Shown: in pieces, positions 3,706 to 64,000 of the stretch
Layout: every line of letters starts with the position of its first letter
How positions within the stretch are numbered: the first letter of the stretch is position 1
Source: Pseudomonadota bacterium
GTDB lineage: Bacteria > Pseudomonadota > Gammaproteobacteria > Burkholderiales > Burkholderiaceae_C
Length of the DNA: 64,000 bases
Assembly (NCBI GenBank): GCA_021805805.1
Contig: JAJZEB010000006.1
Coordinates: 1 to 64,000, forward strand
Reading direction: 5' to 3'
Translations under genes and position numbers: made by a program
The notes under the pieces: generated by a model
What the model was told of the DNA's origin: nothing
Database searches by the model: none
Seen by the model: the letters and a program-made list of their open reading frames with translations, nothing else

Positions 3706-5217
3706 ATGGCGCTGGCCCGTCTCGGCAGCCGCGCGCTGCTGGGGCTCGACGCCCCGGCCGTGCAGGTCGAGGTGCATCTGGCAGGCGGACTGCCCAGTTT
3801 CTCGATCGTCGGACTGGCCGAGGCCGAGGTCCGCGAAGCGCGTGACCGCGTTCGCAGCGCGCTGCTGAATTGCGGATTCGAATTTCCGTCGGCACGGCGC
3901 ATCGTGGTCAATCTGGCCCCGGCCGACCTGCCCAAGGAGTCAGCTCGCTACGACCTGCCGATCGCGCTCGGCGTGCTCGCCGCTGCCGGCGCACTGCCCG
4001 CCGCTGCGCTCGACGACCACGAGTTCGCCGGCGAACTGTCCTTGTCCGGAGAGCTGCGCCCGGTGCGCGGCGCGTTGGCCATGGCGACCGCGGTCGCGCA
4101 CGATTCGCCGCGGAGCCGCTTCGTGCTGCCGACGGCAAGTGCCGCCGAGGCCGCGCTGGGCGCGCCCGCACGCGTGCTCGGCGCGGCTGACCTGTCGCAG
4201 GTCGTGGCGTACCTCTGCGGCCGCCAGGACGCGGCGGCCTTGCAGCCGGCGCCGCCGCCACTGCTGCCGCAGGCGTGCTGGCCCGAGCTGGCCGACGTCC
4301 GCGGCCAGCTCGCCGCCAGGCGTGCGCTGGAGATCGCCGCGGCGGGCGGGCACCACCTGCTGTTGCGCGGCCCACCCGGGTGCGGCAAGTCGATGCTCGC
4401 GCATCGCCTGCCCGGTCTGCTGCCGCCGCCGACCCCCGACGAGGCGCTGGGCAGCGCCGCGCTGCTCGGCGTGGCCGGCCAGTTCGATGCCACGCAATGG
4501 ATGCGGCGCGCGTTCCGCAACCCGCACCACGGCGCTTCGGCAGCGGCGCTGATCGGCGGCGGCAGCGGCGCGCAGCTGCGCCCGGGCGAAGTCTCGCTGG
4601 CGCACGGCGGGGTTCTGTTCCTCGACGAACTTCCCGAGTTCAGCCGCGACGCGCTGGAGAGTCTGCGCGAGCCGCTCGAACGCGGCCACGTCGTGGTGGC
4701 GCGGGCGCGCGCCCGCGCCACCTTCCCTGCGCGCTTCCAGATGGTCGCTGCCATGAACCCGTGCCCATGCGGCTGGTATGGGCACCCGCGCCGCGCCTGC
4801 GGCTGCAGCTCGGCGCAGCTGGCACGCTACCGCGCGCGGCTGTCCGGACCCTTGCTCGACCGCATCGACCTGCAGGTCGACCTGATCGACGTCGCCGCTG
4901 ATGCGCTGCTGCGTCTTCCCGCCGGCGAAACCAGCGCCACGGTCGCGGGGCGCGTGGCGGCAGCACGCCAGCGTCAGTTCGCGCGCCAGGGCGTGCTCAA
5001 CGCCCGGCTCGACGGTGCCGCGCTCGACGTCCACGTCGGCCTCGATCGCAGCTGCGCGCAGTGGTTCTGCAGCGCGCTCGAGCGCCTCGGCTGGTCTGCG
5101 CGCGCCGCGCACCGCACCTTGCGCGTGGCGCGCAGCATCGCCGACCTGGCCGCTGAGGCGCAGCTGTCGCGCGCCGCGCTCGCCGAAGCGATGCAGTACC
5201 GGCTCGGCGACGAATGA
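3706..5217 (+). CDS. comM: YifB/ComM family Mg-chelatase-like AAA+ ATPase
   Basis: 503 aa; LLRGPPGCGKSMLAHRLPGLLPP Walker A, GGVLFLDELPEF Walker B, MNPCPCGWYGHP motif. Confidence 0.95.
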   Translation: MALARLGSRALLGLDAPAVQVEVHLAGGLPSFSIVGLAEAEVREARDRVRSALLNCGFEFPSARRIVVNLAPADLPKESARYDLPIALGVLAAAGALPAAALDDHEFAGELSLSGELRPVRGALAMATAVAHDSPRSRFVLPTASAAEAALGAPARVLGAADLSQVVAYLCGRQDAAALQPAPPPLLPQACWPELADVRGQLAARRALEIAAAGGHHLLLRGPPGCGKSMLAHRLPGLLPPPTPDEALGSAALLGVAGQFDATQWMRRAFRNPHHGASAAALIGGGSGAQLRPGEVSLAHGGVLFLDELPEFSRDALESLREPLERGHVVVARARARATFPARFQMVAAMNPCPCGWYGHPRRACGCSSAQLARYRARLSGPLLDRIDLQVDLIDVAADALLRLPAGETSATVAGRVAAARQRQFARQGVLNARLDGAALDVHVGLDRSCAQWFCSALERLGWSARAAHRTLRVARSIADLAAEAQLSRAALAEAMQYRLGDE

Positions 5218-61981: not shown

Positions 61982-62260
61982 GGAAACGCTCCGCCCCGCG
62001 CGCTCGTTGCAACCGGCCGTCTCGTCGGGGAGGGTTTCGACCACCCGCCGCTGGACACCCTGGTGCTGGCGATGCCAATTTCTTGGAAGGGGACGTTGCA
62101 GCAGTACGCCGGGCGGCTGCATCGCGACTCAGCCTTCAAGCGCGACGCGCGCATCGTTGACGTTGTCGACACCGGCCACCCAGCGCTGTTGCGGATGTGG
62201 GAGCGGCGCCAAAGAGGATATCGGGCGATGGGGTATGTCGTCGGGGAGCCGCGGGCGTAG
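61982..62260 (+). pseudogene. Truncated C-terminal fragment of a DEAD/DEAH (type III restriction/TOTE-type) helicase
   Basis: In-frame ALVATGRLVGEGFDHPPLDTLVLAMPISWKGTLQQYAGRLHRDSAFKRDARIVDVVDTGHPALLRMWERRQRGYRAMGYVVGEPRA: helicase motifs V/VI with no N-terminal helicase upstream (gyrB ends at 61777). Confidence 0.75.
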
Positions 62261-62307: not shown

Positions 62308-63315
62308 TCAGATGAATGACGAGCGGCCAAGCCTACGGGGCAGCGTGTCGAATCCGCAGAGCTCGTCGGCGGACTCGATGTCCAGTCGGGTGTGGCGCGT
62401 TTCCTCCGGCGCGGGATCCGACAACGCGAGATATGAATTGGTTGTGATTTTGTCGGGGAACACGGCCAGACAGTCGCCCTTGCCCTTGGTCGACTTGTAC
62501 AGGATTCCCTCGTAGCCGCTTGCCCTGACAATTTCAGCAAGAATCTGGCCGTTGGCCGGAAGTCCGAACTGCGCGGGGCGGCCGCGCCAGTTTGGCTCGA
62601 AAATGCTGACATACAGTTGCTGGGCCGTACGAACCATGTAAGACCGCCGGTTCGTGAGGCCGAGCCGCTTGCGCAGCGTTTTGGCGCGTTCGGGCATGTC
62701 GATGCGACGGTAGAGCTTGGCGACGGCGTCAAGAGCAGTTGGGGTCCGTAGATCCAGGACGTTGTCGATCCGTCCGGAGATCCTGACCACCGAGAAGCTG
62801 TCGCGTCCCGCCAATGCGAGCTCTTGCGGCGCGAGGCCGCTGGACTCGTCTGAGCGTGGGGCGGCGAATCGCTCGCGGTACGCCGTCTCGTAGTCCTCGG
62901 CCAAATAAAGGGCAGGCCAAGGCAGCAGCGTCCCTTCGTCCAGCTCGACGCCGGCATTGAAGCGTCCGCCGAACGAGCGCAGGCTTCCAGCGGCCGAGAG
63001 CGGGACAAGGCTGAACTCGTGGGGGACTATCCTCGCCCAATGCTCGATCGGCAGACTTGTGAGATGAGGTGATCCCTGGAGGGCGTCGATCAGCTGGGGC
63101 CGCAGGCGATCCCGCGCTGGACGCAGCGCAAAGAAGAGCTCTCGGCTCAGCTCTTCCAGATCGGCGGACAGGGCCTCCCAGCGCCGAAGGTCGGCAGAGG
63201 AAAAGCGATCGAGTTCGAGAATCCCAGGCGCGGCTCCAGCTGCCGGCTTGGGAGGGGGCCTTTTAGGCTTGGGCACGGCGGGCGCGTGGCGACGTCGCTG
63301 CGCGCTGATTCGCAA
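62308..63315 (-). CDS. RES domain toxin (NAD+ phosphorylase/glycohydrolase-like)
   Basis: SFGGRFNAGVELDEGTLLPWPALYLAEDYETAYRERF and GYEGILYKSTKGKGDCLAVFPD match RES features. Start uncertain; overlaps the antitoxin end. Confidence 0.85.
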   Translation of the reverse strand: MRISAQRRRHAPAVPKPKRPPPKPAAGAAPGILELDRFSSADLRRWEALSADLEELSRELFFALRPARDRLRPQLIDALQGSPHLTSLPIEHWARIVPHEFSLVPLSAAGSLRSFGGRFNAGVELDEGTLLPWPALYLAEDYETAYRERFAAPRSDESSGLAPQELALAGRDSFSVVRISGRIDNVLDLRTPTALDAVAKLYRRIDMPERAKTLRKRLGLTNRRSYMVRTAQQLYVSIFEPNWRGRPAQFGLPANGQILAEIVRASGYEGILYKSTKGKGDCLAVFPDKITTNSYLALSDPAPEETRHTRLDIESADELCGFDTLPRRLGRSSFI

Positions 63316-63688
63316 CTTGTTCAGTCATCGCATTGATGATGAATTTTCGTAGGCGCTCGTAGCGCCCCAGCCGGATCATGTCCTTGGGAGAGACGTCACC
63401 TAGCATGGGATTGCGGGTGCCAAACCAAGCAACGGTTCGCTCGACGTCACCGTCGAAGATCTGCGCGACCATGTTCATCGTGTTGCCAATCTCCTCCAGG
63501 CGATCGCGAACAGCGGCCGGCATCTGGGCATCGAAACGCACTGAGCTCACGGCGACCGACGAGAGCCGCGAGATGTCCACCTTCTTGAGTTGGAGTCGGT
63601 CCTGAACCAGCTTGGGCTGGAACGACGCACCATGCCCGAACTGCATGACGTCCGGTGGCAAGGACTCGAACAAACCCATTGCGCTCAT
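63263..63688 (-). CDS. Xre/MbcA/ParS-type antitoxin (DUF2384 toxin-binding domain)
   Basis: VAQIFDGDVERTVAWFGTRNPMLGDVSPKDMIRLGRYERLRKFIINAM; strong Shine-Dalgarno AAAGGAGG before the ATG; directly upstream of the RES gene. Confidence 0.85.
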   Translation of the reverse strand: MSAMGLFESLPPDVMQFGHGASFQPKLVQDRLQLKKVDISRLSSVAVSSVRFDAQMPAAVRDRLEEIGNTMNMVAQIFDGDVERTVAWFGTRNPMLGDVSPKDMIRLGRYERLRKFIINAMTEQVANQRAATSPRARRAQA

Positions 63689-63789
63689 CTCAACCTCCTT
63701 TGTAGCCCGACCGTGGATCAGGTCGGCCGGGGTCATCGTGCTTGCGTCAGATAGCACGATCGGAACATGATTGAACCACGGTTTCAACA

Positions 63790-63938
63790 AGAACGCTTGG
63801 CGCCCACTTTCCCCTACTTCTAGACATCATGGTCGCCGCCCGAGGGCAGATGGCCGGTCCCCAACATCGTAGGTTGCGCGCCGAGGCGCGTAGAGCTACA
63901 TGCTGTGGCATAGGCCATCAGCAAACAGGAGACCGACC
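63790..63938 (+). ncRNA. Candidate IS110 left-end bridge RNA region
   Basis: About 150 nt non-coding DNA upstream of the transposase start with short hairpins (63838-63847, 63877-63890, 63890-63899, 63900-63911). Confidence 0.4.
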
Positions 63939-64000
63939 ATGGAAAAGGGTACCAAGATACATGTGGGTTTGGACGTCCATAAGGACAGCATCACGGTGGC
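63939..64000 (+). mobile_element. IS110-family transposase, N-terminus (truncated by window end)
   Basis: MEKGTKIHVGLDVHKDSITV: DEDD transposase start typical of IS110. Confidence 0.88.

What the first reader, a model, noticed from the sequence alone, without database searches (positions are those of the whole stretch)
63790..64000. IS110 left end with candidate bridge RNA
MEKGTKIHVGLDVHKDSITV begins at 63939 after about 150 nt of non-coding DNA with several short hairpins (e.g. CGCGC-CGAG-GCGCG, GTAG-AG-CTAC, ATGC-TGTG-GCAT). IS110-group elements encode a bridge RNA in this position that programs target and donor recognition. The insertion point next to the antitoxin promoter may reveal the target sequence.
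Basis: partly seen in the sequence, partly recalled or inferred. Interest (0 to 1): 0.62.

Follow-up and report, generated by a model that had tools for sequence, protein, structure and literature searches.

The report
Broken IS110-family element, no guide RNA

Summary
In detail: an IS110-family transposase starts at 63939 behind about 119 nt of structured non-coding DNA. The bridge-RNA reading is not supported. The contig runs 1,092 bp past the window, and intact relatives at 88-91% DNA identity define the element: about 1.5 kb, subterminal repeats ATGGTCGCCG/CGGCGACCAT with 7-bp and 3-bp extensions, core AG, a short left end (117-140 nt) and a long right end (250-298 nt). The right end encodes a covarying, roughly 200-nt RNA. 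Two of its segments copy the left and right junctions and change with them, so the guide RNA sits at the 3' end (IS1111-like architecture). In the window copy, homology stops at codon 342 (contig 64965). Nine bp later an IS66-type, DruA-bearing element begins, and no right-end RNA is found anywhere in this assembly. The left-end hairpins are nevertheless a true conserved RNA: 12 of 28 pairs show changes on both sides (0/500 shuffles), and an 11-bp helix pairs with the Shine-Dalgarno region. The best reading is a 5'-UTR translational brake, as described for ISPpu9. The transposase falls in a clade with ISSfr2 and ISEc45, equally far from IS621 and IS5075. Ordinary element; a modestly interesting two-RNA subgroup.

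The parts
63820..63821 (+). CT, the target-side bases at the left junction (mostly CT or TT in relatives)
   Evidence: left junctions of 30+ relatives
63822..63828 (+). AGACATC: left terminus, beginning with core AG, 7-bp extension outside the subterminal repeat
   Evidence: core AG by analogy with ISPpu9
63829..63838 (+). left subterminal inverted repeat ATGGTCGCCG; partner CGGCGACCAT lies at the right end of relatives and is absent here
63852..63862 (+). 5' strand of the 11-bp helix (GGCCGGTCCCC) that pairs with the RBS region 63928-63938; 2 C.A mismatches in this copy
63869..63899 (+). central hairpin 63869-63881 with 63886-63899, compensatory changes in relatives
63901..63923 (+). third small helix (TGC-TG 63901-63905 with CAGCA 63919-63923)
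63848..63941 (+). whole left-end structured RNA (covariance model R1), 5'UTR of tnp
   Evidence: R1 96.9 bits (a training sequence)
63928..63938 (+). Shine-Dalgarno GGAG and ATG-proximal strand of the 11-bp helix
63939..64000 (+). start of the IS110-family transposase; homology runs to contig 64965 (codon 342), foreign sequence after that, stop at contig 65028-65030

Best explanation
This is a truncated copy of an IS110-family element from the ISSfr2/ISEc45 clade. In intact relatives the guide (bridge/seek) RNA is encoded downstream of the transposase, in the right-end non-coding region. One segment of it copies the left junction ([C/T]TAGA) and another copies the right junction (ATA[T/C/A]GAG plus the next flank base). 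The left-end hairpins at 63848-63938 are a conserved 5'-UTR structure that hides the transposase ribosome-binding site and so lowers transposase translation. The window copy is very probably dead as a transposon: its last ~29 codons, right terminus and guide RNA are gone, and 9 bp beyond the break lies the end of an IS66-type element carrying a DruA gene. Shown: structures, covariation, junction copying, truncation, absence of right-end RNA from the assembly. Inferred: translational brake, guide function, loss of activity.
For: Boundaries from relatives at 88-91% nt identity. Intact relatives: LE 117-140 nt, RE 250-298 nt. RE RNA: 18/50 pairs with changes on both sides, 95.5% of cells paired, 0/500 shuffles, 28-46% when slid. 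RE copies of the junctions: right variable base 18/19 by script, the one miss (L025) a wrong regex hit that one search shows matching; next flank base 10/19 against 3.9 expected; left base -2 17/19 against 11.5; a C in the loop goes with a C in the flank 7/7. LE RNA: 12/28 pairs, 0/500. SD unpaired probability averages 0.19 against 0.41 in shuffles, near 0.001 in 11 of 26. R1 matches end at the tnp start codon in relatives including ISSfr2; R2 matches lie downstream of tnp, including ISSfr2 and ISEc45. R2 finds nothing in this genome (best 12 bits, E 4.6), and neither does the 3' DNA of a relative. Interrupter. Precedent ISPpu9 (PMC8450116).
Against: In this copy and its nearest relatives the RBS helix has two C.A mismatches and predicted occlusion is weak (0.27 against 0.38 in shuffles). 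The clade of L012, L026 and L091 does not keep the outer helix in the alignment. Junction copying extends only 1-2 bases into the target, and target preference looks loose. Some of the covariation may follow phylogeny. No RNA was measured.
Confidence: 0.78

Rival explanations
1. The left-end RNA is an IS110-type bridge RNA that guides target and donor recognition.
For: It is structured and conserved, and the position is right for IS110-group elements such as IS621.
Against: Relatives have a longer right-end RNA with segments copying both junctions. No left-end column stood out against the flanks apart from the junction bases themselves. The outer helix covers the tnp RBS. The central sequence is nearly invariant although the flanks differ.
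Confidence: 0.06
2. The truncation is an assembly artefact: the real genome has an intact copy and the contig is mis-joined at its end.
For: The break lies 127 bp from the contig end, in a draft of 211 contigs, and the new sequence is a mobile-element end.
Against: The 9 bp before the IS66-type end (CCCGAGTTC) also precede that end in another Thiomonas (L109). No contig of this genome carries the missing 3' part or its RNA.
Confidence: 0.15
3. Both end RNAs act in transposition, as two parts of one guide or as a regulator sensing transposase or guide RNA.
For: Both are conserved together across the clade.
Against: The left RNA has a sufficient explanation as RBS occlusion; no junction match was found in it.
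Confidence: 0.08

Closest known systems
ISPpu9 (Pseudomonas putida; PMC8450116)
   Same: Structured tnp 5'-UTR that likely includes the RBS, an sRNA encoded downstream of tnp (Ssr9), AG direct repeat at the ends, orphan copies of the downstream RNA.
   Different: ISPpu9 has a 244-nt UTR, an antisense RNA (Asr9, not tested here) and sits in REP sequences; sequence homology to the present left-end RNA was not tested.
ISSfr2 (Sinorhizobium), ISEc45 (E. coli)
   Same: Same transposase clade (51% and 44% identity to the window protein). ISSfr2 matches both RNA models; ISEc45 matches the right-end model weakly (28 bits).
   Different: Sequences well diverged; ISEc45 gave no left-end RNA hit.
IS1111-group elements with seekRNA (ISEc11, IS5075/IS4321; PMC11187229)
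   Same: Subterminal inverted repeats with 7-bp and 3-bp extensions, longer non-coding region and RNA downstream of tnp.
   Different: Transposase about 357-384 aa in intact relatives instead of 330-350, and only 25% identical to IS5075; a structured 5'-UTR is not among the listed features.
IS621 / ISCro4 (IS110 group, bridge RNA upstream)
   Same: DEDD plus serine transposase architecture.
   Different: IS621-type bridge RNA lies upstream of tnp; here the junction-matching RNA lies downstream. 24% identity to IS621.

Membership tests
IS110 family (broad sense) | DEDD N-terminal and Transposase_20 C-terminal domains | tested here: met
IS1111 group | subterminal inverted repeats with 7-bp and 3-bp extensions | tested here: met
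   In relatives: AGACATC-ATGGTCGCCG ... CGGCGACCAT-ATG|AG. In the window copy only the left half is present.
IS1111 group | longer non-coding region and guide RNA downstream of tnp | tested here: met
   Relatives: 250-298 nt right against 117-140 nt left, RNA right. Absent from the window copy.
IS1111 group | transposase related over its full length to the IS1111 type, 330-350 aa | tested here: not met
   357-384 aa; separate clade with ISSfr2 and ISEc45, 25% to IS5075; deep branches unsure
IS110 group (IS621 type) | bridge RNA in a long left end with loops matching target and donor | tested here: not met
   left end is the shorter one and no left-end column stood out against the flanks
5'-UTR RBS-occluding structure as in ISPpu9 | conserved pairing of the Shine-Dalgarno region of tnp | tested here: met
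   weak in the window's own sub-lineage
5'-UTR RBS-occluding structure as in ISPpu9 | opening the structure raises translation | not testable with these tools
   needs reporter fusions
bridge/seek RNA | RNA bound by the transposase and required for transposition | not testable with these tools
   needs pull-down and transposition assay

The most novel reading that the evidence does not exclude
This clade carries two co-conserved structured RNAs, a junction-matching guide at the right end and a second RNA at the left end that does more than occlude the RBS, for example sensing transposase or guide RNA so that translation is coupled to ribonucleoprotein assembly.
Probability: 0.12. Interest if true: 0.6.

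Novelty: new member of a known kind. Interest (0 to 1): 0.3.

Why it matters
It corrects a tempting error: hairpins upstream of an IS110-family transposase are not by themselves a bridge RNA. It defines an element clade with both a conserved 5'-UTR structure and a 3' guide RNA, neither matched in Rfam, with many intact relatives on which transposase control and guide-target pairing could be tested.

Tried and rejected
Rfam on the window and five element loci: no match. Empty site for the window insertion in 301 genomes of the family: none. Scan of left-end columns against flanks for guide-like covariation: nothing beyond the junction bases, though the scan is noisy for both ends. Idea that the elements target the ends of other insertion sequences: by eye on the longest open frames, only one of 20 right flanks (L137) clearly carried another transposase, so dropped. 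Consensus promoter and terminator scan of an intact relative: nothing.

Full report
Where the window lies. The window is bases 1-64000 of a 65,092-bp contig in a 211-contig draft genome. Relatives named in public records are Thiomonas, so the host is probably Thiomonas. Reading on past the window, the transposase frame continues to a stop at contig 65028-65030. It is the only copy in the assembly.

Element ends. Close relatives at 88-91% DNA identity match from contig 63818/63820 to exactly 64965 and then stop matching. They continue with ...ANKVCVAVARELAGFVWA... while the window copy turns into CCCGAGTTC followed by GTAAATATTCGGTGA. The latter is the end of an element that in a related genome carries an IS66 transposase fragment and a DruA gene. 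The 3' part of the IS110-type element is not found elsewhere in the assembly. The window copy therefore lacks about 29 conserved C-terminal residues, its right terminus and its right non-coding region. A mis-join at the contig end cannot be fully excluded.

Architecture of intact relatives. About 20 relatives from Burkholderiales and allied bacteria have both ends. The left non-coding region is 117-140 nt. The right is 250-298 nt where no second insertion disturbs it. The ends are [C/T]T|AGACATC-ATGGTCGCCG and CGGCGACCAT-ATG|AG. These are subterminal inverted repeats with exactly the 7-bp and 3-bp extensions described for IS1111 elements (PMC11187229). A conserved TTGAC lies just inside the right end. 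With the left end joined, a promoter-like CATCAT would stand 17 bp away, as in circular intermediates of this family (inference).

Right-end RNA. Eighteen aligned right ends fold into a closed structure of about 200 nt with a 21-bp outer helix. Eighteen of 50 pairs change on both sides and 0 of 500 shuffles reach any of the five measures; sliding the partner by 1-3 bases drops paired cells from 95.5% to 28-46%. One loop reads ATA[T/C/A]GAGN. Its variable base equals the one at the right terminus in 18 of 19 elements by script (the miss, L025, was a wrong regex hit and matches), and N equals the first flank base in 10 of 19 against 3.9 expected. When N is C the flank is C in 7 of 7. A second segment, [C/T]TAGA, copies the left junction; base -2 agrees in 17 of 19 against 11.5 expected. 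L013 has CAAGA in both places. This is the expected behaviour of a bridge/seek RNA. A covariance model of it matches ISSfr2 (74 bits), ISEc45 (28 bits) and many gammaproteobacterial relatives, downstream of tnp. It finds nothing in the window's genome.

Left-end RNA. Twelve of 28 pairs change on both sides and 0 of 500 shuffles reach four of the five measures; the number of pair types does not exceed shuffles. The outer helix GGCCGGTCTCC/GGAGACCGGCC ends at the start codon and contains the Shine-Dalgarno GGAG. Predicted accessibility of GGAG averages 0.19 against 0.41 with a shuffled upstream part, and is near zero in 11 of 26 sequences. In the window copy and its nearest relatives two C.A mismatches weaken it. 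A model of this RNA ends at the tnp start codon in most gammaproteobacterial relatives it matched and in ISSfr2, at 19-36 bits, so the more distant matches are suggestive only. No left-end column stood out against the flanks. ISPpu9 has such a UTR, shown by mutation to limit translation (PMC8450116). I therefore read the left-end RNA as a translational brake.

Filing. The transposase groups with ISSfr2 and ISEc45 (97/97 support) and is about equally distant from IS5075 (IS1111 type, 25%) and IS621 (IS110 type, 24%). It works like an IS1111 element. It is not filed as one, because the transposase criterion was tested and not met.

Target. The right junction of the window copy is lost and no empty site was found, so its target cannot be read. 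The antitoxin-like gene next to it very likely starts at ATG 63688 (an AGGAGG lies just upstream), so the insertion is about 130 bp upstream of that gene.

Noticed in passing
window 62308-63790, minus strand: RES-domain toxin (PF08808) and an Xre/MbcA-like antitoxin (Pfam score just below cut-off), a likely toxin-antitoxin pair; inverted repeats near 63739-63760 and TTGAACCACGGTTTCAA upstream look operator-like.
   Followed up: partly
contig 64975-65092 (L002 4976-5093); L110-L113: End of an IS66-type element carrying a DruA (Druantia) homologue as passenger, multicopy in a related Thiomonas genome (G003).
   Followed up: partly
L005 about 4214-4380; L089 right end: The guide RNA of two relatives is interrupted at CTAG inside its left guide segment: a roughly 163-bp MITE-like insert flanked by CTAG in L005, an insertion-sequence end in L089.
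   Followed up: partly
L007 4246-4327: In Variovorax sp. J22R133 an 83-nt segment holding the guide hairpin is inverted relative to L006 (96% identity on the opposite strand).
   Followed up: partly
L153, L155, L157, L158, L159: Copies of the right-end RNA in other Thiomonas genomes with no transposase found in the ~3 kb fetched, or only its last 33 residues (L155), recalling orphan ssr9 copies of ISPpu9.
   Followed up: partly
window about 62000-62260: Open frame resembling only the C-terminal part of a DEAD/DEAH-type helicase, downstream of gyrB; looks like a gene remnant.
   Followed up: no
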